Origin: a virus
Reading direction: 5' to 3' (one strand)
IMG/VR virus record: IMGVR_UViG_3300037845_000029
Span: 1 to 53,725 of that record
Length of the DNA: 53,725 nucleotides
The translations under genes were made by a program, and so were the position numbers. Below, piece after piece: positions 2,504 through 53,725 of this stretch. The notes under the pieces were generated by a model. The model saw only the letters and a program-made list of their open reading frames with translations. It was not told the DNA's origin and searched no databases. Every line of letters starts with the position of its first letter. Within the stretch, counting starts at the first letter, position 1.

Positions 2504-5283
2504 GCACGATTGCAAATATCACCGTCGCGCTCTCTGCCGACATCTCGAACTTCATTTCCGGCACGAAGAAGTCGGCCACGGCCATCAACGACCTGATGCG
2601 TGCGGCGAACAAGGCGACGACCGAGGGATTGTCGCCGCTTCAGCGCTACGAAGCGGCGATGGACCTGCTCGGGACGAAACTCTGGGAAGGCCAAGCCGCC
2701 GTGTTGGCTTACGACAAGGTCACGAAGTTTCTGGCCGAGACACTTGCCAAGGAAACTGCGGCTGTGAATGCCGCCGCAGAGGCTACTGCCAGGCTTCGCG
2801 CCAAACAGGAAGCTACGTTGCAAGTCGCTGTCGCAATGATGGCACAAATGGGCCAGGGTCGCTGGAACTCCTGGGAAGCCGGACTAGCGAACATTTCCAA
2901 TGCAACGCTTGCCGCAGAAGCAAGAACGAAGGCGCTATCTGCTGCTGCGACGGCAATGATGGCGCAAATGTCCAAGGGTTCATGGAACTCATGGGAAGCT
3001 GGGCTAGCTAATATCGCAAATGCCACTGCCGCAGCCGAAGCAAGAACGAAGGCACTGTCCGCGGCTGTGACGACAATGATGGCGCAAATGGGCCAAGGGC
3101 GTTGGAGCTCGTGGGCCGCAGGTCTGGCAAATATCACGAATGCCACGAACGCCGCCGCCGCCGCAAACCAGCGACTTGCGACAGTTGTTGTGCCAATGAT
3201 GGCGCAGATGGGCCAAGGTCGCTGGAACTCGTGGGCCGCAGGCTTGGCAAACATCACGAATGCTACCGCCGCTGCCAAAGCACGAATGGACGATGTCTCT
3301 AATGCGGGCCGCGGCGGTTTCCGAATGATCGCGTCGGCGATCAGCCCAACCATCGGCCAAATGGCGTCCTTCGGCGTCGGCGTCGGCGCGGCGATCTTGG
3401 CCATCAACGAGTTTAAGAACGCCATGTCGGCCATCGTCTCGACCGGCGTGAACCTGATGGTAACGTTCGAGAACGTCGAGGTATCGCTCTCGACGATGTA
3501 CAAATCCGCCGGCAAGGGAAAGGCGGTCTTGGAAGAGCTGAAGGACTTGGCCGCCAAGACGCCGATGGAGTTCCCTGAAATCGCGCGCTCGGCGAAGTCT
3601 CTGGCAGCCGTTGGCATCGAAGCGAGGGACCTGCAAGGTCATTTGAAGCTGATGACCGAACTGGCGGCTGGTTCGGGAACGAGCATCGAAGAATTGACGC
3701 GCATCTATACCCGCAACCTGATTCAAGGGCGGCAGTACACTCGCGACATCAACGAGTTCAGCAACGCCGGCATCCCGATTTGGACGCAACTCTCCAAGGT
3801 GATGAAGGTCTCCAATGACGAAGTGCATCAGATGGTGACGGACGGCAGGATCGGAGCGCACGAATTCCAAATGGCGCTGATCGAACTGGTAGACGCTGGC
3901 GGACGATGGCACGGCGCTTCCGAGGCCGCGCAGAAGAGCACGCAAGGGCTGATGGCGACCTTGAAGGATTACACAGGGTTCATTTTGGAGGGCATGACGA
4001 AGGCCACTGCGGAAGCCCTGCACTTCAAGGATGTCATTGGCGGAATCAACCAGTCGATGGCGCGAGAACGCGACGTATGGCAGACGACGACGGCCGACGC
4101 ATTTGGTTTCTTCGATGTTTTCGGTGCCGGATTAGGCTCGTTTTTGAGGTTCAATGAAACCCAAAAGAAAATCGCCGCCCTGCAAAAGATGGACGCGCAG
4201 GAGCGTTTGGATTACGACGCCGCAAAGAAGGCCAATGACCACGACGAAATGGATCGGGCGGCAAAGAAGATTCGCCAAATCCAGTTGATGATTGCCTTAC
4301 ATCAGGGTGAGATGCTGAGTGCGCAGGACGTAAAACTGCTGGCCGAGCGCGGCAAGGAAGAATTACCGACTCCCTTCAAGGGCGGCGACGCCGCCGCACG
4401 TGCCGAATTGGAGAAGAACAAGGAGTCGTTTGACAAGCTGCACGATGCGATGATTAAGGCGTGGGACGCAGCACGGTTCGGCAAGGAAGCGATGGACCGA
4501 CTCGCCTACGCCAACGCGGCGATCGCAGCCGGCAATCGGACAAGCATCGGCGAAATCATGGGTCATTACGACATGGTCGTAGCCGAGACGAAGGCGGCTG
4601 AAGAACGGACGAAGGCAGAAAAGGACGCCGACGCCGAACGAAAGAGACACACGGAGACCTATGACAAGTTGATCTTGAGCCTCAAGCTGAAGATCGCGCT
4701 GCTCGATAAGGATGCCGAAGCTGAGAGGGCTGCGCAATTGGCGGCCGAAGGAAACAACGAGACTGAAGTTCGTCGCATCCTGCTCCTAGAAAAGCAATTT
4801 CGAGTCAGGAAGGAGATGCTTGATGCCCAGAAGGAAGCCGCCGACAAGAACAAAAAGGATTTCGACGACATGAAGAGGCGGGCCGATGAACTCAAAAAGT
4901 CCCTCGAAACACCCGAGGCGGCACAGCAACGCAAGGAAAAGGAACTAGACAAGCTCTTCGACAAGGGACTGCTGACGCCCGATGAACGAGACGCCTTGCA
5001 AAACAAGATCGACCTGGAAATGCAGGAGGCACTGGAGCGCGATAAGAAAAAGACCTTCGGCCCGGCCGCCAAAGCGTTCACCCCCGCCGCCGAATTCGGT
5101 TCCAAGGAAGCCTACAGCATCATGGTCCGGGCGATGGGCGGCTTCGGCGGCAAGAACGAGGCCGAGAAGCAACGCAAGCGGATCATCGAAGAGTTGCGGC
5201 AGGCGAACATCGAAAACCGTCGGCGACACAACGAGAACAGGCAACCCAAGGTCATCAACATTGCCGGCGGGGGTGTGTTCTGA
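2500..5283 (+). CDS. Tape measure protein
   Basis: 927 residues, the longest gene in the window and directly after the chaperone pair, as usual for the protein that sets tail length. Residues about 300-500 hold the common tape measure domain (KTPMEFPEIARSAKSLAAVG, followed by IEELTRIYTRNLIQGR and INEFSNAGIPIWTQLS). A hydrophobic glycine-rich segment lies near residues 270-310. Residues 113-272 are four 40-residue tandem repeats. The C-terminal third is strongly charged and probably coiled coil. The protein is likely ejected with the DNA. It overlaps the next gene by a TGATG junction. Confidence 0.92.
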   Translation: MSTIANITVALSADISNFISGTKKSATAINDLMRAANKATTEGLSPLQRYEAAMDLLGTKLWEGQAAVLAYDKVTKFLAETLAKETAAVNAAAEATARLRAKQEATLQVAVAMMAQMGQGRWNSWEAGLANISNATLAAEARTKALSAAATAMMAQMSKGSWNSWEAGLANIANATAAAEARTKALSAAVTTMMAQMGQGRWSSWAAGLANITNATNAAAAANQRLATVVVPMMAQMGQGRWNSWAAGLANITNATAAAKARMDDVSNAGRGGFRMIASAISPTIGQMASFGVGVGAAILAINEFKNAMSAIVSTGVNLMVTFENVEVSLSTMYKSAGKGKAVLEELKDLAAKTPMEFPEIARSAKSLAAVGIEARDLQGHLKLMTELAAGSGTSIEELTRIYTRNLIQGRQYTRDINEFSNAGIPIWTQLSKVMKVSNDEVHQMVTDGRIGAHEFQMALIELVDAGGRWHGASEAAQKSTQGLMATLKDYTGFILEGMTKATAEALHFKDVIGGINQSMARERDVWQTTTADAFGFFDVFGAGLGSFLRFNETQKKIAALQKMDAQERLDYDAAKKANDHDEMDRAAKKIRQIQLMIALHQGEMLSAQDVKLLAERGKEELPTPFKGGDAAARAELEKNKESFDKLHDAMIKAWDAARFGKEAMDRLAYANAAIAAGNRTSIGEIMGHYDMVVAETKAAEERTKAEKDADAERKRHTETYDKLILSLKLKIALLDKDAEAERAAQLAAEGNNETEVRRILLLEKQFRVRKEMLDAQKEAADKNKKDFDDMKRRADELKKSLETPEAAQQRKEKELDKLFDKGLLTPDERDALQNKIDLEMQEALERDKKKTFGPAAKAFTPAAEFGSKEAYSIMVRAMGGFGGKNEAEKQRKRIIEELRQANIENRRRHNENRQPKVINIAGGGVF
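2836..3315 (+). repeat. Four 120-bp in-frame tandem repeats in the tape measure gene
   Basis: Copies start at 2836, 2956, 3076 and 3196, exactly 120 bp apart. Each encodes 40 residues beginning MMAQM and carrying G(R/S)W(N/S)SW, AGLANI and NAT. Third-position differences show they are not an assembly artefact. Unit gain or loss would change tail length by a fixed step. Confidence 0.9.
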
Positions 5284-9726: not shown

Positions 9727-10080
9727 CGTGTAGGTCCAGAGGTCTAGCACCACGACGCGCGACCAAGTTGGCTTGCCTTTGATCCAGCCGGCCACTGGAA
9801 AGTCCTCCGGGCACACCAGCGTCCCCACGAGCGGATCGCGACTGCCGATGATGTCGATGGGCCGCAACGCCTTCAGTTCCGCATTGGCCTCATCAAGCTC
9901 TTTTTGGAGAGTTTCGATACGGCGGATCGCCTCCGCGTGGAGAATCCGTTCGTTACGGGGTTCGTTTCGCCATCGCCATATCTGTTTCGTTCCAAGGCAC
10001 GCGGTAACTACAATGGTGAGCACGACCGCAATTGCCTTGGCAACCAGGATAGATCGCGAGAATTGAAAGCGGGGGTTCAT
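9724..10080 (-). CDS. Thioredoxin-fold protein, N-terminal membrane-anchored part
   Basis: 118 residues from ATG 10080. Residues about 10-32 form a membrane segment (ILVAKAIAVVLTIVVTACLG), followed by a helical charged linker and then GWIKGKPTWSRVVVLDLWTYT, the classic lead-in of TlpA/AhpC-type redoxins (WxxxC). The codon that should be the first active-site Cys is TGA (9724-9726), and the rest of the domain follows in the same frame. Either the gene encodes selenocysteine, or this is a nonsense mutation. The expected place of the protein is the periplasmic face of the membrane. Confidence 0.65.
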   Translation of the reverse strand: MNPRFQFSRSILVAKAIAVVLTIVVTACLGTKQIWRWRNEPRNERILHAEAIRRIETLQKELDEANAELKALRPIDIIGSRDPLVGTLVCPEDFPVAGWIKGKPTWSRVVVLDLWTYT

Positions 10081-10319
10081 TGTTTGGCCTCGGCCACAGG
10101 TCGCGGCCAGGGCCCGAAACGCCTTGGGCGCCCTCGCTTTGGCGCCGTCTTGAGCAACTCCCGGCATCGTTCCATGTCGGCATCGTCCAACAGTGTCGAA
10201 GGCGGGATCATGTTCGGCTTCCGCTTGCCGATGCCGTGCGCGAGGCAGAGGCGTTCGAGTCGCTTGTGGTGAACGCCTATGAGTGCGGCCGAGGCTCGGA
10301 TGCTGAGTCGTTTTTCCAT
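10077..10319 (-). CDS. Small helix-turn-helix protein
   Basis: 80 residues from ATG 10319. RASAALIGVHHKRLERLCLA reads as a MerR/excisionase-like helix-turn-helix, followed by a basic tail (KRGRPRRFGP). It is one of a set of similarly built small HTH proteins in this window (18306, 20445, 35553, 47791). It overlaps the redoxin gene start (10080) by 4 bases, so the two form one minus-strand unit. It lies next to the divergent control region and could regulate it. Start at 10334 is also possible. Confidence 0.6.
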   Translation of the reverse strand: MEKRLSIRASAALIGVHHKRLERLCLAHGIGKRKPNMIPPSTLLDDADMERCRELLKTAPKRGRPRRFGPWPRPVAEAKQ

Positions 10320-10486
10320 AGTGGTTTGGAACATTGCAACCCATGTGCCGAAATAGGCAAAAAAACGTGCGCGTTGGGTACACGGTCGTCGGCCGGCCAT
10401 CCACCAAAATGATGACCCGCCTATGGGTGGTTTAGTCGCAACACGTTGTCACTAGCCTAGTTACGACATTTAGCCTTTCGTCTAAT

Positions 10487-10513
10487 CGTCGTAAGCCTAT
10501 GCGCCGTAGAATC
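10487..10513 (+). repeat. Control-region repeat, copy 1
   Basis: Begins CGTCGTAAGCCTATG and shares CGTAAGC plus the following T/A-rich step with copies at 10796 and 10861. It overlaps the inverted repeat at 10507-10527. Confidence 0.4.
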
Positions 10514-27564: not shown

Positions 27565-28722
27565 TCATTCTATCTCGTCTCCCCAATAATTCCAAGATGC
27601 TCCCGTTCGTTTTTTTCGTGCGAACATTTCGAGTTTCGAGCCAGGGCAGAGCTTTTCGATCATCGCGTAGAATTCTTCCGGCTTGGCCGAATGCTTGCCG
27701 GAATCGGCGATCAGCAACGTCGTTTGATTCGTGAGCCGGATGGTCGGCTTACCGCGAACACACATCAGGCAATGTTCGGTCTTGCCGCGCAGCCAGTCGC
27801 CCGTACCCATCTTCTGTTTGCCCCAGGTGAGCATCGTCTTGTAAGTGAAGCCCCACGCTTCGACTACCTCGAATGCTTCTCGCAAGTGCGCGTTGGTCGT
27901 CCAAAGCCAAAGCACGGAATCGTCATGGGCTCGCGCGCCAACATCGAGAGCTTTGATTTTTGCGATGGACATGGACGGGTACGGATTCGCGGCGCGATGG
28001 CTTGGGTCTTCTTCTCTCGCATCGTATTGCCACGGCGGGTCGGCGACGATGACGCGATACTGGCCTTCCGGCAAAGGCGGCGGCTCGCTCTCGATCGCTG
28101 CCGACTTTTGGGCCACGACGAGCTTTTTGTGGGCGCCGTTCACCTTGCCGGTTCGGTTCATTTCGTCGATGAGATCGCGGTCGCCTGAATTGACGACCGC
28201 CTTTGCCTTCTCGTAAGTGCGACGGTCCATGCCGACGGCGGCGGCGGCCTGCCCCTTTGTCGTGCGCGCTTCTTCGGCTTTTGTGTCGCGGCAATCCTTA
28301 CGGGAAATTCCCGTAAGGTTTTTCTTTTTGCCACGACCGCCGGCCTGCCCATCAGCGCTCTTGCCGGCTTGCTGTGCCTCTCTAGCCAACTTGGCCGCGA
28401 CGGTTTCGATCCGACCGCCTAGGTGGACGGCTTCTTCCGGCGTGTACGGTTCGCGGCAGGTGTTTTCATCCCGCTCCGCTTCTAGCAGCAGGTTCAATTC
28501 GGTCAGATTTCTGGCGATGTTGGCCGGGATTTCATCGCGGCCTAGCTTCTTGAACGCTTCGATTCGCCTGCGCCCGACAACCAGCTTCTTGTCCGAGGTT
28601 AGTACGATGGGATGCAGCAGCGTTACCCGTTCGATGCTGTCGGCTAAGCTGGCAATGTCGCCCATCGCCTTGCGAGAGCGGCCTTTCACGTCGATCTCGG
28701 AAATCGGAACCATCGTGGCCAT
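27565..28722 (-). CDS. ParB domain fused to MT-A70 adenine-N6 DNA methyltransferase
   Basis: 385 residues. Residues 1-75 are a ParB N-terminal domain (VLTSDKKLVVGRRRIEAFKK). Residues 150-205 contain an HTH (KGQAAAAVGMDRRTYEKAKA). From 215 on it is an MT-A70 methyltransferase: VIVADPPWQYD (DPPW 228-231), SVLWLWTTNAHLREAFEV and WGFTYKTMLTWGKQ. The enzyme would put N6-methyl on adenine in phage DNA, with the ParB part supplying DNA binding. AAGGAG precedes the ATG. Its promoter overlaps that of the divergent HTH gene. Confidence 0.88.
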   Translation of the reverse strand: MATMVPISEIDVKGRSRKAMGDIASLADSIERVTLLHPIVLTSDKKLVVGRRRIEAFKKLGRDEIPANIARNLTELNLLLEAERDENTCREPYTPEEAVHLGGRIETVAAKLAREAQQAGKSADGQAGGRGKKKNLTGISRKDCRDTKAEEARTTKGQAAAAVGMDRRTYEKAKAVVNSGDRDLIDEMNRTGKVNGAHKKLVVAQKSAAIESEPPPLPEGQYRVIVADPPWQYDAREEDPSHRAANPYPSMSIAKIKALDVGARAHDDSVLWLWTTNAHLREAFEVVEAWGFTYKTMLTWGKQKMGTGDWLRGKTEHCLMCVRGKPTIRLTNQTTLLIADSGKHSAKPEEFYAMIEKLCPGSKLEMFARKKRTGASWNYWGDEIE

Positions 28723-47759: not shown

Positions 47760-47784
47760 CGCCGTTTGTCACACCTGTTACAAT
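47756..47784 (+). promoter_or_regulatory. Sigma-70-type promoter, leaderless
   Basis: TTGACG 47756-47761 (overlapping the previous stop), spacer 17, TACAAT 47779-47784. ATG 47791 follows after 6 bases, so the mRNA would begin at the start codon. Confidence 0.75.
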
Positions 47785-47790
47785 CCCGCG

Positions 47791-47979
47791 ATGTGCTTGA
47801 CCGACGTGCTGCAAAAGCTGGCCGACGATGGATTGCCGCTGACGAAACGGCAAATCCGCTACGCGATCAAGGCCGGGCACGTCTCGCGGCCCAGGCTCAA
47901 CGGCAGCCGCGCGTTCGACTTCACGGCGGCGGATGTCGGCGAGCTGCGAAGGCACTTCAAGCGGAAGGCGAAACGATGA
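47791..47979 (+). CDS. Small HTH protein
   Basis: 62 residues. LQKLADDGLPLTKRQIRYAI followed by SRPRLNGSRAFDFTAADVGE and a basic tail (RRHFKRKAKR) is a MerR/excisionase-like winged HTH. It follows a leaderless promoter and opens the last operon, which ends with the Cas12-like gene, so it may regulate that operon. Confidence 0.65.
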   Translation: MCLTDVLQKLADDGLPLTKRQIRYAIKAGHVSRPRLNGSRAFDFTAADVGELRRHFKRKAKR

Positions 47980-48938
47980 CCGATTTTGAAAAATACGTTG
48001 CGGCCTGCACTTATCCCGGCGTACTCGACGAGCGAGCGGTTGACCGGCATCTTCGCGAGTACCTTTCCGCGATAGGTGTCGAGCGAAAGGTCATTCGGCT
48101 GAATCGTGGATGGTCGGTCGACGATCATCCTGAGCTACGCGGCTACGTCAATGCTATTCTGGACGATTTTGCGACGCGCGCCGCCCTCGACGCCCGCGAC
48201 GCCCGCGACGCCCGCGCCGCCCTCGACGCCCTCGACGCCCGCGACGCCCGCGACGCCCGCGCCGCCCTCGACGCCCTCGACGCCCTCGACGCCCGCGCCC
48301 GATTCTGCTCATGGTGCATCCATCGAAGCAACTGGTACTATTCGTTCGACTTGTCATGGATCGCGACGACGCAATTCGGTGCCGCCCAGCTTGGTAGGCG
48401 GATACCCTGGGCGCGACCAATCTTCGACGCATTTTTAGCGGGAGTTTGGTTTCTGCACTGGACCGAAGGCGCATTGTTTTGGGTCTCAAAACCGACGATA
48501 CGACTTGAGACAATCGGCGGCACTCGACGCCCGCACTGCGAAAGCGGCCCAGCGTTGGAATCGGATATCGAGCCGCTATACTTTTGGCATGGTGTGCTCG
48601 TCGATTCATACGTGGTCACAGAACCATCGCGCATCACGACGGAGGAAATCCGAAGTGAGACGAGCGAAGAAGTCCGCCGCGTGTTGATCGAACGCTTTGG
48701 CTGGGAGCGTTGGCTCCAAGAGGAAAAGGCAAAAATCCAGCACATGAGATTCAACGAGCGGGACGGGCAGTGGGAGCGGCTGTATCGACTCGACGACGGG
48801 CAGCAGCGCGTCGTATTGACGGACCCTTCGACGGGACGCCGTTATGCACTTGGCTGCCCAGCGGAGATAGCGACGTGCGAAGAAGCACAAAACTTTTTTT
48901 CACACGGCCTTGACAAGTTGGCCATTCACCGCAGCTGA
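47976..48938 (+). CDS. DUF6745-like protein with inserted DAR repeats
   Basis: 320 residues from ATG 47976 (ATGA overlap). C-terminal half: CESGPALESDIEPLYFWHGV followed by ITTEEIRSETSEEVRRVLIE and RFGWERWL matches the recurring pattern of DUF6745 proteins (recalled, not searched). Residues about 68-109 are Asp-Ala-Arg/Ala-Ala-Leu repeats, probably a single straight helix. No known function; such proteins occur in bacteria and phages with many paralogues. Confidence 0.65.
   Translation: MTDFEKYVAACTYPGVLDERAVDRHLREYLSAIGVERKVIRLNRGWSVDDHPELRGYVNAILDDFATRAALDARDARDARAALDALDARDARDARAALDALDALDARARFCSWCIHRSNWYYSFDLSWIATTQFGAAQLGRRIPWARPIFDAFLAGVWFLHWTEGALFWVSKPTIRLETIGGTRRPHCESGPALESDIEPLYFWHGVLVDSYVVTEPSRITTEEIRSETSEEVRRVLIERFGWERWLQEEKAKIQHMRFNERDGQWERLYRLDDGQQRVVLTDPSTGRRYALGCPAEIATCEEAQNFFSHGLDKLAIHRS
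48178..48300 (+). repeat. 9-bp in-frame tandem repeats (DAR / AAL / DAL)
   Basis: Units GACGCCCGC, GACGCCCTC and GCCGCCCTC alternate about 13 times. They keep the reading frame, so copy-number change alters helix length in 3-residue steps. Slippage during replication is expected. Confidence 0.85.
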
Positions 48939-50044: not shown

Positions 50045-50365
50045 ATGCCGACGAAGGTTTACGGATCGAGCGACGACCTGATCGAAGTCGAAGGCGGCAA
50101 GTGCGCAGGCGAAGTCGGATGCTACGGCACCGATGACCGCGAGCATGGCGTGCTTTTGCTGTTCAGCGACGGCACGCTGCTTGAGGTCAAGTACGGCAAG
50201 AACGACGATGCGATTTGGGAGGTCAAACTCGTCAAGAAGGGCAAGCAGTTCGACCGTATCGACCAATGCGACGACGCTGATGCCGACCCCTATAGCGACG
50301 TGGCGCACTTCAAAGCCGATTTGGATTGGTGCTACGCGGCCAAGGAATGGGAAAAAGTCGCATGA
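50045..50365 (+). CDS. Hypothetical protein
   Basis: 106 residues. DDLIEVEGGKCAGEVGCYGT and HGVLLLFSDGTLLEVKYGKN make a beta-rich domain; acidic C-terminus. Related proteins occur widely in phages and bacteria without known role. Overlaps the GNAT gene by 4 bases. Confidence 0.7.
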   Translation: MPTKVYGSSDDLIEVEGGKCAGEVGCYGTDDREHGVLLLFSDGTLLEVKYGKNDDAIWEVKLVKKGKQFDRIDQCDDADADPYSDVAHFKADLDWCYAAKEWEKVA

Positions 50366-50859
50366 CCCCCTCGACACCCGCGACCAACATGACTCCGCAC
50401 CTACGCTGGATGATCCGCAGAGATCTCGTCGAAGTTCTCGAAATTGAGCGGCAGGCGTTCGACCATCCGTGGAGCGAAGACGACTTCATGCGCGTGCTCC
50501 GTCAGAAGAACTGCATCGGCATGGTGGCGGAATTCGACGAGCAAGTGATCGGCTTCATGGTCTACGCGCTCGACAGGACCGACATCACGATCCTCGACTT
50601 CGCGGTTGAACCGGAGCACGTCCGCAAGGGAATCGGCCGCGCGATGGTCGACAAGCTGAAGGCCAAGCTCTATCCAGGCCGCAGACGACGGCTGAACTTG
50701 CTGATCCGCGAGACGAACATCGGCGCGCAACTGTTCTTTCGGGCAATGGGGTTCAAGGCCATCAAGGTCGTGCGCGACGCCTTCAAGGAACCTGCCGGCG
50801 AGGCGGCCTACCTGATGCAATACAGGCTGTCAGTCGAAGCGGGGAGACAGACAGCATGA
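50362..50859 (+). CDS. GNAT acetyltransferase, RimI-like
   Basis: 165 residues from ATG 50362. RRDLVEVLEIERQAFDHPWS is the RimI-type opening; ITILDFAVEPEHVRKGIGRA carries the acetyl-CoA loop (R/Q-x-x-G-x-G/A as RKGIGRA), and NIGAQLFFRAMGFKAIKVV is motif B. It would acetylate N-terminal amines of a protein. Located two genes before the Cas12-like effector in a coupled operon; a role in modifying host or phage proteins is possible. Confidence 0.85.
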   Translation: MTPSTPATNMTPHLRWMIRRDLVEVLEIERQAFDHPWSEDDFMRVLRQKNCIGMVAEFDEQVIGFMVYALDRTDITILDFAVEPEHVRKGIGRAMVDKLKAKLYPGRRRRLNLLIRETNIGAQLFFRAMGFKAIKVVRDAFKEPAGEAAYLMQYRLSVEAGRQTA

Positions 50860-51320
50860 CCACAACTCGCCCACCTTTGACCGACCGCCAGCGCCAGGTG
50901 CTCGACCTGATCCGCGCCGGCAACGGCTATCCGCCGAGCGTCCGCGAAATCGCAAGGAAGATGGGCACGCGATCGGCGAATGGGATGATGGTTCATCTGC
51001 GCGCCCTGGAGCGCAAAGGCTACATCCTTCGCGAGCAGTTCGCGAGCCGCGCGATCATGCTGGTACGACCGGAGCGGTTTTTTCCCGACGTCGACGGCCA
51101 GCCGGCCGTCCCAATGCGGCAGTCGGAACTGGCGCCGATGATGGACCTCGACGGGGAGACGCATGGAGTTTACAAGATGATCGACGGGAAGTGCGGAATC
51201 CCGCACATTCGCGAGGGAGACATCCTACTCACAGAGCGCGGCTTCAATCATTTGCGCAGACCCATAAGTCTCGGCGCGATCAAGGCTCGTTCGCTGGCCG
51301 TCATCCGGGTGCTCCCATGA
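50856..51320 (+). CDS. LexA-like DNA-binding protein lacking the protease active site
   Basis: 154 residues (ATGA overlap). LTDRQRQVLDLIRAGNGYPP followed by SVREIARKMGTRSANGMMVH, then LRALERKGYILRE, is the LexA winged-helix N-terminus. The C-terminal half (GVYKMIDGKCGIPHIREGDI) lacks the Ser-Lys dyad and Ala-Gly cleavage site of LexA/S24 repressors. It is probably a constitutive or ligand-controlled repressor, possibly of its own operon, which contains the effector. Confidence 0.75.
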   Translation: MTTTRPPLTDRQRQVLDLIRAGNGYPPSVREIARKMGTRSANGMMVHLRALERKGYILREQFASRAIMLVRPERFFPDVDGQPAVPMRQSELAPMMDLDGETHGVYKMIDGKCGIPHIREGDILLTERGFNHLRRPISLGAIKARSLAVIRVLP

Positions 51321-51493
51321 GTTTCAGTTTCCTTTGGCGGCACGCCGGCTTGATCTCGCTTTGGACGGAACGCTGGTCACTGCACATCGGCGTCAAGTTT
51401 CAATTCTGGCAGTGGGAGCCGCATGACCGAGACCTGCTTTACACGACAACGGGTGTTGGACCGGCGCTGCTGCTGGCGTGGGAGAACGGATGA
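51317..51493 (+). CDS. 58-residue protein upstream of the effector
   Basis: ATG 51317 in an ATGA overlap with the LexA-like gene; TGA 51491-51493 overlaps the effector start. SFLWRHAGLISLWTERWSLH and IGVKFQFWQWEPHD are Trp-rich and beta-like. The coupling makes translation likely. Function unknown; an accessory or inhibitor of the effector is only a guess. Confidence 0.6.
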   Translation: MSFSFLWRHAGLISLWTERWSLHIGVKFQFWQWEPHDRDLLYTTTGVGPALLLAWENG

Positions 51494-53361
51494 TGGCAAA
51501 ATTTCACGACTCCGACCCGTCGATCAACTGGCTGGCCCACGCGAAAGCGCCGACGACCGGCAAAGAGCTGGTCGAGGCGCAGTTCTCGGCGGCTCATCGC
51601 TACTACAACACGCTTATCGAAATCGAGCGCTGCCGCCAGCAAAAGTACCTTGAGCTGCGACGCAAGCTATTCCCGGCGTTGGAAGCCGCCGAGGTCGAAT
51701 ACGCCAGGCTTGACGGCGAGTTGTCGGCGGTTCGAGACGAGATCAAACAGGCCAACGCCAAGACGCACAAACGCTCGACCGGCACGTCGGAGCAGCGCGC
51801 CGAGATCAAGAGGCTCAAGGGCGAGCGAACGGCGTGCGCGAAGGTCGCCAAGGAAGTCCGCGAGAGGGCCAAGGATTCGGCCGCGCTGGCGAACGGCGCC
51901 GAGGCCATCAACGACGAGGCCCGCGCCGCCGTGCGCGCGGCACGGGCTGCGACTGAAACATTCTGGTGCTCATATTTGCAGGTGGAAGCGGCCGTCCAAC
52001 AGGCGAGCAAGGATTCCAAGCCGCTCCCGCCGCGCTTCAAGCGCTGGACCGGCGACGGAACCGTGTCGGTGCAACTGCAAGGCGGCCTGTCATGGTCCGG
52101 GCTGCTTGCCGGCGACGACACGCGCGCCAGGCTCGTCGCGCGAGATTGGTCAAGCATCGAGGCGAACACGCGGGCGCCGAATGGGAAACACGACAAGCCG
52201 AGTCCCAGCGGCAGGCGCGCCAAGCGACGATTTGATCTTTGGCTTCGCGTCGGCAGCGACGGTCGCAAGCCGGTCTGGGCCGTTTTTCCGATCGTCCTCT
52301 ATCGTGAACCGATAGGCGCGGATGAGTTGCTGGTTAAGTGGATTCACGTCGACCGCATCAAGCGGGCCACCGCGTATGTCTGGCAGGCTCGTTTCGTATT
52401 GGCCAAGAAAAGCGGCTGGGCCAAGACCTGTTCGCCGTCCGGCACGGTCGGCGTCGACGTCGGCTGGCGATTGGTGCCCGATGGCCTGCGCGTCGCGTAC
52501 TGGGTAGGTAGCGATGGACGTGAAGGGCAACTTGTCTTACCGCAGGAGTTGCTCAACGCCAAGGACGACATGGAGGCCATCCAGACGATTCGCGACAAGA
52601 ATTTCAGCGCGATGAAGCTGCGCTTGGCGCGCTGGTTCAAGCGTGCGCAGGGCGAACTCGTAATGGAGGGCGAGCTGCGGCTGCCGACGGTGGCCGCCAA
52701 GTTGCCAGCGTGGATGACGGATTCGCCTGGACTGGACAGGGACGGAAAGCCAAAAGCGTCGATCGTCGCCGGTATGCCGCATTGGAAGAGCCCTGGCCGG
52801 GCGGAATCGCTCTATCGTCAATGGCGCGACAACCGTTTCACCGGAGACGACGATGGCTTTCGCATGTTGAGCGACTGGCGCAACGGCAGCGGACGGTCGC
52901 ACGAGCACGGGGACTTGCACCTTTGGCGCTTCCAAACGGGTAGGCGGATTCGGGCCTTGAAGCGGCGCAAGGACATCTACCGGAAGTTCGCGCGCGAGTT
53001 GGCCCAGAATTACGCCGTCTGCCGCGTGGAGAAACTGAATCTGGCGGAGATGCGGCGGCGACCGGAAGCCGAAGATGACAAGGCAAGTGGCGCAGTGGTC
53101 ATGTTCCGCAACCTGGCGGCCAATGGCGAGCTGCTGGAATGCCTGCGGCAAAGCGGGATGGCGGTCGAGGCATTGCCGGCGGAGAACACGACGCGCATGC
53201 ACTTGGCCTGCGGCCACATCAGCAGTTGGTCGGATGAAGAGCGCGCGGCGGTGATGGTGACGTGCCAATCGTGCGGTGAAAGCTACGACCAGGACGCTCA
53301 AAGCGCTGCTCTTTTGCTGGCCGGCGGTGTCGCGAGCGTCGAGGTGGTAGGCACTGTTTGA
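51490..53361 (+). CDS. Compact Cas12/TnpB-type RuvC effector (type V, subtype unassigned)
   Basis: 623 residues from ATG 51490 (ATGA overlap, GGGAG upstream); ATG 51478 and 51493 are alternatives. Residues 20-155 are helical/coiled coil (HRYYNTLIEIERCRQQKYLE). The split RuvC nuclease is complete: RuvC-I TVGVDVGWRLVPDGLRVAYW with Asp323; RuvC-II AVCRVEKLNLAEMRRR with Glu514; zinc finger HLACGH (Cys574, His576) with CQSCG (Cys592, Cys595); RuvC-III YDQDAQSAALLL with Asp602. The CGH half replaces the usual first CxxC. A CRISPR-like array follows 91 bases downstream, so an RNA-guided nuclease is more likely than a transposon TnpB. No cas1/cas2 is visible. Confidence 0.85.
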   Translation: MMAKFHDSDPSINWLAHAKAPTTGKELVEAQFSAAHRYYNTLIEIERCRQQKYLELRRKLFPALEAAEVEYARLDGELSAVRDEIKQANAKTHKRSTGTSEQRAEIKRLKGERTACAKVAKEVRERAKDSAALANGAEAINDEARAAVRAARAATETFWCSYLQVEAAVQQASKDSKPLPPRFKRWTGDGTVSVQLQGGLSWSGLLAGDDTRARLVARDWSSIEANTRAPNGKHDKPSPSGRRAKRRFDLWLRVGSDGRKPVWAVFPIVLYREPIGADELLVKWIHVDRIKRATAYVWQARFVLAKKSGWAKTCSPSGTVGVDVGWRLVPDGLRVAYWVGSDGREGQLVLPQELLNAKDDMEAIQTIRDKNFSAMKLRLARWFKRAQGELVMEGELRLPTVAAKLPAWMTDSPGLDRDGKPKASIVAGMPHWKSPGRAESLYRQWRDNRFTGDDDGFRMLSDWRNGSGRSHEHGDLHLWRFQTGRRIRALKRRKDIYRKFARELAQNYAVCRVEKLNLAEMRRRPEAEDDKASGAVVMFRNLAANGELLECLRQSGMAVEALPAENTTRMHLACGHISSWSDEERAAVMVTCQSCGESYDQDAQSAALLLAGGVASVEVVGTV

Positions 53362-53452
53362 CCACGAGAAATAAGGAGTTACGTCACGAAAAAAAGCACC
53401 GCTCGCAAATTGCTACTTGGCGCTTTGGTACGAAAGGACTTATGGTAGGAGC
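53362..53452 (+). other. Leader between effector and array
   Basis: 91 bases, less GC-rich than the flanks. I see no anti-repeat matching the array, so no evident tracrRNA. It holds the promoter-like pair described separately. Confidence 0.5.
53417..53446 (+). promoter_or_regulatory. Candidate promoter of the array
   Basis: TTGGCG 53417-53422, spacer 18, TATGGT 53441-53446. Transcription would begin about 7 bases later, at 53453, the first base of the first repeat, on the same strand as the effector. Both boxes are imperfect. Confidence 0.4.
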
Positions 53453-53725
53453 GTTGCAGTGCCTGCGCGGAGGCTTTGTGTCTGCGACGTTGTGGGCATG
53501 GAGCATTTCGTCGATTGCGACGATTGTTGCAGTGCCTGCGCGGAGGCTTTGTGTCTGCGACGTTGTGGGCATGGAGCATTTCGTCGATTGCGACGATTGT
53601 TGCAGTGCCTGCGCGGAGGCTTTGTGTCTGCGACGTTGTGGGCATGGAGCATTTCGTCGATTGCGACGATTGTTGCAGTGCCTGCGCGGAGGCTTTGTGT
53701 CTGCGACGTTGTGGGCATGGAGCAT
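53453..53725 (+). CRISPR. CRISPR-like array, 73-bp period, cut by the window edge
   Basis: Three complete identical 73-bp units start at 53453, 53526 and 53599; a fourth (53672) is truncated after 54 bases. A 36-bp repeat is inferred: its ends GTTGCAG and CTGCGAC pair (one G-U), and GCCT/AGGC form an inner stem. The remaining 37 bp would be the spacer. All visible spacers are the same, so the repeat/spacer boundary rests on the dyad and the left edge only. Position beside a RuvC effector supports a CRISPR array; identical units at a contig end may also be an assembly loop. Confidence 0.7.

What the first reader, a model, noticed from the sequence alone, without database searches (positions are those of the whole stretch)
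51490..53725. Minimal phage-borne type V system: compact RuvC effector plus array, no other cas gene
A 623-residue protein with a complete split RuvC site (Asp323, Glu514, Asp602) and zinc finger is followed within 91 bp by a 73-bp periodic array. The rest of the window has no cas1, cas2 or cas4. The effector is translated in a coupled block with GNAT, LexA-like and 58-residue proteins, so it is under phage control. I could not place it in a named Cas12 subtype; the Cys-Gly-His half of the zinc finger is unusual. It could be a new or rare compact subtype used against competing phages or host DNA.
Basis: partly seen in the sequence, partly recalled or inferred. Interest (0 to 1): 0.92.

Follow-up and report, generated by a model that had tools for sequence, protein, structure and literature searches.

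The report
Phage-borne type V-M CRISPR (Cas12m) locus
This virus of bacteria carries its own tiny CRISPR silencer (a Cas12m protein plus its guide-RNA array), a known kind of system that probably blocks target DNA by sitting on it rather than cutting it; the unusual points are an array that repeats a single guide and, in related viruses, arrays made of already guide-sized units.

Summary
A 623-aa RuvC protein (51490-53361) with Asp323/Glu514/Asp602 is followed after 91 bp by 3.7 exact 73-bp units that run into the contig end, and no cas1, cas2 or cas4 was found in the window. It can be placed: sequence and fold searches put it in Cas12m, subtype V-M (formerly V-U1), not TnpB and not a new subtype. 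The 'odd' zinc finger is the HxxC...CxxC type of Cas12m2. The array is a CRISPR array: its deduced 36-nt repeat matches, 33 of 36, an array with varied spacers beside another viral cas12m, and its last 28 nt form the V-M crRNA pseudoknot, strongly covarying across 14 repeats. All copies carry the same 37-nt spacer, with no target found. Published D-E-D Cas12m proteins bind without cutting, so crRNA-guided blocking is more likely than cleavage. Unusual: Tyr271 replaces a His found in the 15 others aligned, and the array has one guide. Phage-borne V-M without acquisition genes is already reported, so this is a new member of a known kind. In passing, a 180-kb viral contig carries 28 mature-crRNA-sized, mutually divergent units beside its cas12m, possibly the more novel lead.

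The parts
51490..53361 (+). cas12m-like gene (P0001, 623 aa), type V-M effector
   Evidence: PADLOC Cas12u1 9e-73 and Cas12f_SPE 2.3e-74; PDB Cas12m 23vw 4.1e-51, Cas12m2 8hhl 9e-23; Foldseek top four hits Cas12m
52456..52458 (+). codon of RuvC-I Asp323
   Evidence: aligned with the first catalytic position in 16 Cas12m proteins
53029..53031 (+). codon of RuvC-II Glu514
53293..53295 (+). codon of RuvC-III Asp602
   Evidence: invariant in all rows
53200..53274 (+). zinc finger His571-x2-Cys574 ... Cys592-x2-Cys595 (HCCC)
   Evidence: alignment; same arrangement as His549/Cys552/Cys569/Cys572 of Cas12m2 (PMC10442227)
52300..52305 (+). Tyr271-Arg272, in place of the His-Arg of the other 15 aligned Cas12m (His269-Arg270 in Cas12m2)
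   Evidence: role of His269 in reading C(-1) of the crRNA: PMC10442227
53453..53488 (+). CRISPR repeat 1 (36 nt); the last 28 nt are the pseudoknot core
   Evidence: 33 of 36 identical to the repeat of the viral cas12m locus L012; structure counts
53489..53525 (+). spacer 1 (37 nt) GTTGTGGGCATGGAGCATTTCGTCGATTGCGACGATT
   Evidence: register set by L012 and Pelobacter repeats
53526..53561 (+). CRISPR repeat 2
53562..53598 (+). spacer 2, identical to spacer 1
53599..53634 (+). CRISPR repeat 3
53635..53671 (+). spacer 3, identical to spacer 1
53672..53707 (+). CRISPR repeat 4
53708..53725 (+). first 18 nt of spacer 4 (identical), cut by the contig end
53362..53452 (+). 91-bp gap between cas12m and the array; no consensus promoter or terminator found
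50326..50859 (+). GNAT acetyltransferase (RimI-like), upstream gene of the overlapping block
   Evidence: Pfam PF00583 1.4e-13; TIGR01575 1.6e-23
50856..51320 (+). protein with a LexA-type DNA-binding domain; its stop and start codons overlap those of its neighbours
   Evidence: PF01726 7.4e-21
51317..51493 (+). 58-aa ORF; its stop overlaps the cas12m start

Best explanation
A type V-M CRISPR locus on a tailed phage: one Cas12m effector and a short array, no acquisition genes. The array RNA is most likely cut into crRNAs whose repeat part folds into the V-M pseudoknot; Cas12m loads one, opens target DNA next to a PAM, and stays bound as a roadblock to transcription or replication of the target rather than cutting it. 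As assembled, every crRNA would carry the same guide (GTTGTGGGCATGGAGCATTT...), so the complex would silence a single target, plausibly a competing element or a host gene. Shown here: the protein family, the triad, the repeat and its conserved structure, the missing cas1/2/4 in the window, the single guide in the assembly. Inferred: expression, processing, binding without cleavage, and the kind of target.
For: Full-length matches to V-U1/Cas12m profiles and solved Cas12m chains. AlphaFold model (pLDDT 79, pTM 0.46) finds Cas12m2/Cas12m first, 2e-28 to 6e-22, ahead of Cas12f at 7e-11. It falls with the D-E-D-rich group of phage proteins and MsCas12m, 100/99 support for the split from four plasmid proteins. 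Repeat 33 of 36 identical to that of viral locus L012, which has 36-37-nt varied spacers beside its own cas12m. 28-nt pseudoknot: 99.2% of cells paired in 14 distinct cores, covariation 0.894 against 0.245 in shuffles, slid versions 30-48% paired. The near-invariant G, A and final C are the bases Cas12m2 reads (PMC10442227). D-E-D Cas12m variants bind and do not cleave (PMC11013384). Phage context: tape measure, major tail protein, RecE, RecT, DnaB helicase.
Against: No activity is tested for this protein or any close one (best identities about 30-38%). Tyr271 replaces the His that reads the last repeat base in Cas12m2, and the first WED strand diverges, so crRNA binding may differ. The Arg pocket of Cas12m2 (Arg111/112) is not evident in the alignment, though a coiled coil aligns unreliably. 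One guide only and no target found.
Confidence: 0.72

Rival explanations
1. Cas12m effector that does cut DNA: the complete Asp-Glu-Asp site is used, and the phage destroys competing DNA.
For: All three acidic residues are present and kept in most phage relatives, while several plasmid relatives have lost them. Omura et al. considered hydrolysis possible for D-E-D clades (PMC10442227).
Against: D-E-D Cas12m variants tested by Bigelyte et al. showed no dsDNA cleavage (PMC11013384). Restoring D-E-D in Cas12m2 did not restore cutting (PMC10442227).
Confidence: 0.15
2. Dedicated one-target repressor: the repeated identical units raise the dose of a single guide, so the phage uses Cas12m as an RNA-guided transcription factor against one gene, in the manner of the TnpB-derived TldR repressors.
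For: All 3.7 units carry the same spacer; the gene sits in an overlapping block with a LexA-type DNA-binding protein; phage-encoded RNA-guided repressors are known (PMC13418256, abstract).
Against: No target found; viral relatives have many different spacers; the identity may come from assembly.
Confidence: 0.25
3. The identical units are an assembly product: the true array has one copy of this spacer (or other spacers beyond), and the assembler went round a loop until the contig ended. This concerns the copy number only, not the identity of the system.
For: The array is exactly periodic and runs into the contig end; relatives L012, Rctr197k and L017 have differing spacers.
Against: Cas1-less arrays can also grow by tandem duplication; 273 bp is longer than a simple k-mer overlap would be expected to give (inference).
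Confidence: 0.4
4. A decaying or non-functional locus.
For: Tyr271 in place of a His kept in the 15 others; divergent N-terminal strand; no varied spacers.
Against: Intact 623-aa frame with normal codon-position G+C bias, triad and zinc ligands kept, repeat structure fully paired.
Confidence: 0.1
5. A TnpB of IS605/IS607 type with a chance tandem repeat.
For: Weak C-terminal matches to TnpB profiles (17-24 bits) and phrog transposases.
Against: Scores far below cut-offs; Cas12m matches are full length; repeat belongs to the V-M type.
Confidence: 0.01

Closest known systems
Type V-M CRISPR, Cas12m with D-E-D site (Allomeiothermus silvanus MsCas12m, PMC11013384)
   Same: RuvC triad D-E-D, compact single effector, array just downstream, no acquisition genes nearby; repeat with the same pseudoknot
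   Different: About 28-31% identical; thermophile plasmid, not phage; 37-nt repeat; zinc finger CCCC instead of HCCC; His instead of Tyr271
Cas12m2 of Mycolicibacterium (8HHL, PMC10442227)
   Same: Overall fold by Foldseek, HCCC zinc finger, 36-nt repeat-derived scaffold with pseudoknot
   Different: H-D-D triad; His269 at the place of Tyr271; Arg-rich pocket not evident here
Virus Rctr197k cas12m/CRISPR locus (KX853510)
   Same: Phage-borne D-E-D Cas12m, array 34 bp after the gene, no Cas1 found in the record
   Different: 30-34% identical; array of many different spacers; repeat sequence differs (CTCACAAGAGAAGCTCAGATCTTTGGGTTCTGAGAC)
Viral contigs L012/L013 (IMG/VR 3300025568, 3300004003)
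   Same: Repeat 33 of 36 identical, 36-37-nt spacers, D-E-D Cas12m
   Different: Protein 31% identical and 65 residues shorter; spacers all different
Virus-encoded Cas12m-like effectors beside arrays reported from landfills (PMC12607003) and V-U variants in huge phages (PMC7162821)
   Same: Virus-borne, compact, without spacer acquisition genes
   Different: Sequences not compared here; single-guide array not mentioned in the passages read
TldR repressors (TnpB-derived, phage-encoded; PMC13418256)
   Same: Would work alike if the single guide is real: RNA-guided repression of one gene
   Different: TldR descends from TnpB and (from general knowledge) uses a TnpB-type guide RNA, not a CRISPR array; not the same family

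Membership tests
Type V-M (Cas12m, formerly V-U1) | Full-length sequence relation to Cas12m | tested here: met
   PADLOC Cas12u1 9e-73 over residues 25-612; PDB Cas12m 4e-51
Type V-M (Cas12m, formerly V-U1) | Cas12m fold with helical REC insertion, WED, RuvC, TNB | tested here: met
   Foldseek best four hits all Cas12m; four long helices in 25-154. Model pTM 0.46, so domain placement is uncertain
Type V-M (Cas12m, formerly V-U1) | RuvC triad of a V-M kind (HDD, NDD, DED and others) | tested here: met
   D323/E514/D602; D-E-D is one of the known V-M kinds (PMC11013384, PMC10442227)
Type V-M (Cas12m, formerly V-U1) | Adjacent CRISPR array with V-M repeat ending in pseudoknot and ...GAC | tested here: met
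Type V-M (Cas12m, formerly V-U1) | No cas1/cas2/cas4 in the locus | tested here: met
   whole phage genome not available
Type V-M (Cas12m, formerly V-U1) | crRNA-guided, PAM-dependent DNA binding without cleavage | not testable with these tools
   needs protein and crRNA
Type V-M (Cas12m, formerly V-U1) | His269-Arg270 of WED (conserved contact with the crRNA; a conserved trait, not a definition of the subtype) | tested here: not met
   Tyr271-Arg272 here, His-Arg in the 15 others
CRISPR array (general) | Identical repeats separated by different spacers | tested here: inconclusive
   In the window all spacers are identical; a near-identical repeat in L012 separates different spacers
Type V-F (Cas12f) | Best match to Cas12f sequence and fold | tested here: not met
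   One PADLOC profile named Cas12f (PDLC01692) scores like the Cas12u1 profile, but other Cas12f profiles give 5e-15 or 0.002, no Cas12f chain at E<=1, Foldseek Cas12f 7e-11 against Cas12m 2e-28
TnpB (IS605/IS607) | TnpB profile over its curated cut-off | tested here: not met
   23.6 bits against 350, 17.4 against 100
TnpB (IS605/IS607) | Transposon ends and right-end guide RNA | not tested
   not searched for, given the results above

The most novel reading that the evidence does not exclude
Phage V-M arrays without Cas1 may grow by tandem duplication of whole guide units, followed by divergence of guide and repeat with paired changes in the pseudoknot. The window would show the first stage (fresh identical units, one guide, effector with altered crRNA-contact residue Tyr271), and the 180-kb viral contig L015 the late stage (28 mature-sized, mutually divergent units).
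Probability: 0.2. Interest if true: 0.75.

Novelty: new member of a known kind. Interest (0 to 1): 0.45.

Why it matters
It adds a well-supported phage-borne V-M locus with an intact D-E-D site, useful for asking whether phage Cas12m ever cuts, and what phages use a DNA-blocking CRISPR effector for. If the single-guide array is real, it would be a CRISPR effector used as a one-gene repressor, and its target would be directly testable. The related arrays of mature-sized, covarying units raise the question of how CRISPR arrays evolve without acquisition genes.

Tried and rejected
The Rctr197k protein and a degenerate repeat pattern worked. Exact repeat, spacer and intergenic patterns found nothing in viral contigs. 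Spacer matches in phage and plasmid records are at chance level, E 1-6, and the window has no self-target. The Rctr197k and L012 arrays gave no convincing targets among phages. Rfam gave only a chance miRNA match below its threshold. No promoter was recognised before the array. TnpB, Cas12f and 'new subtype' readings were rejected (see membership test). The idea that Tyr271 would abolish crRNA processing was dropped: H269A/R270A hardly changed processing in Cas12m2 (PMC10442227); an effect on crRNA recognition remains open. The relatives do not share the GNAT, LexA-like or 58-aa neighbours. The phage's host could not be named (searches give only distant matches in many phages).

Full report
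What is in the sequence. The window (a linear IMG/VR virus record of 53,725 bases) ends with a 623-aa ORF at 51490-53361 and, 91 bp later, 3.7 copies of a 73-bp unit at 53453-53725 that are 100% identical and run into the contig end. Upstream, a GNAT protein, a protein with a LexA-type DNA-binding domain (PF01726 7e-21) and a 58-aa ORF overlap each other and the effector by start/stop codons. The record is a tailed phage: tape measure, major tail protein, RecE-like exonuclease, RecT, DnaB-like helicase, clamp loader. Cas1, Cas2 and Cas4 profiles find nothing in the window.

The protein is Cas12m. PADLOC's Cas12u1 and one of its Cas12f profiles, of near-equal length, match full length at 9e-73 and 2e-74. 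In the PDB the only five matches at E<=1 are Cas12m chains (one deposited under the name 'Transposase' but solved as Cas12m, 8pm4), best 4e-51. An AlphaFold model from seven sequences (pLDDT 79, pTM 0.46, so domain placement is unsure) finds four Cas12m entries first (2e-28 to 6e-22), Cas12f at 7e-11 and TnpB at 1e-7. TnpB profiles score 17-24 bits against cut-offs of 100-350. Asp323, Glu514 and Asp602 sit in the catalytic columns.

Relatives. tblastn found phage Rctr197k (30%, 91% covered; annotated 'similar to transposase', with an annotated CRISPR 34 bp after it) and plasmid V-M proteins including MsCas12m. With the Rctr197k protein as query, eight more viral loci came up, and a degenerate repeat pattern gave two further viral contigs, L012 and L013. 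None of the nine relative records searched has Cas1. A 16-row tree separates four plasmid proteins (N-T-D, D-K-D, N-D-D) from the window protein and the remaining rows with 100/99 support; inside, most forks are open. Phage relatives are mostly D-E-D.

The array is a V-M CRISPR array. Because all units in the window are identical, relatives set the boundaries. L012 has eight exact copies of GTTGCAATGCCTGCGCAGAGGCTTTGTTTCTGCGAC with different 36-37-nt spacers. The window's GTTGCAGTGCCTGCGCGGAGGCTTTGTGTCTGCGAC differs at 3 of 36 positions. Its last 28 nt form two interleaved helices (GCC/GGC and CGCGGA/TCTGCG). Across 14 distinct cores from phage and plasmid repeats, 99.2% of cells pair, 8 of 9 pairs show changes on both sides, and the covariation score is 0.894 against 0.245 in shuffles; sliding the partners drops pairing to 30-48%. 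Some cores (those of L015 and L020) were first picked with the help of complementarity, so cells-paired is inflated; the plasmid, L012, L017 and Rctr197k repeats were found as plain repeats. The same architecture, with a G:A pair next to the pseudoknot and a final C, is seen in the Cas12m2 crRNA (PMC10442227). In the rest of the window, both strands, one chance site satisfies the same rules.

How it probably works. D-E-D Cas12m proteins were tested and bound PAM-bearing DNA without cutting it, and Cas12m effectors blocked plasmids and phages (PMC11013384). The simplest reading is that this phage makes crRNAs from the array and uses Cas12m as a roadblock. The target is unknown: the spacer matches nothing convincing in the window, phages, plasmids or viral contigs. 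All assembled units carry one guide. That could be real (a one-target silencer) or an assembly loop; the data here cannot decide. One residue is unusual: Tyr271 replaces a His present in the 15 other rows. In Cas12m2 this His reads the last base of the repeat; alanine there hardly changed processing, so an effect, if any, would be on crRNA recognition.

Known or new. Koonin and Makarova note V-M in plasmids and some prophages (PMC11656645). Huge phages carry V-U variants mostly without acquisition genes (PMC7162821), and a landfill survey lists 24 virus-encoded effectors that group with Cas12m (PMC12607003). So this is a new member of a known kind, with two open oddities: the single guide and Tyr271.

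A stronger lead nearby. Viral contig L015 (180 kb, terminase match 9e-20) has, right after its D-E-D cas12m, 28 units of 28-nt pseudoknot core plus 17-23-nt guide (one of 32), most often 20 nt, without the 5' part of the usual repeat. In the 21 units picked by bases outside stem II, all differ from one another, and stem II pairs at 5.67 of 6 against 4.59 when partners are swapped between units. Other stretches of the locus give none at the same score. Two guide pairs are more alike than column-shuffled guides give (15/17 and 13/17), which hints at duplication and divergence. L018/L021 show similar short units on both sides of cas12m. A pattern scan for such mature-sized pairs found only this same phage group. 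I did not find this described in the papers searched, but that search was limited.

Noticed in passing
L015:9752-11110 (IMGVR_UViG_3300024243_000005; same in L014, L016): Array after cas12m of 28 mature-crRNA-sized units (28-nt pseudoknot core plus mostly 17-23-nt guide), mutually divergent, stems covarying; two guide pairs are near-copies.
   Followed up: partly
L018:7700-7970 and 9849-10490; L021: Similar short V-M units (29-nt core, period about 46-55) on both sides of an N-E-D cas12m.
   Followed up: partly
G007 (152.9-kb viral record, L020/L027), 8817 and 57382: Two separate cas12m genes in one viral record.
   Followed up: no
KX853510.1 (L005) 2887-4755: The phage Rctr197k cas12m is deposited only as 'similar to transposase' although its frame is open and a CRISPR is annotated beside it.
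   Followed up: yes
window 48177-48297: Nine-base tandem repeat (13 copies) inside ORF 47766-48938, coding an Ala/Asp/Arg-rich stretch.
   Followed up: no
window 2834-3286: 120-bp imperfect tandem repeat inside the tape measure gene.
   Followed up: no
window 27565-28722, minus strand: ParB-like domain joined to a DNA methyltransferase, on the opposite strand to most genes.
   Followed up: no
window spacer, 53508-53523 and its copies: The PAM-distal half of the spacer holds a perfect hairpin TCGTCG-ATTG-CGACGA; it could reflect a palindromic target site or chance.
   Followed up: no
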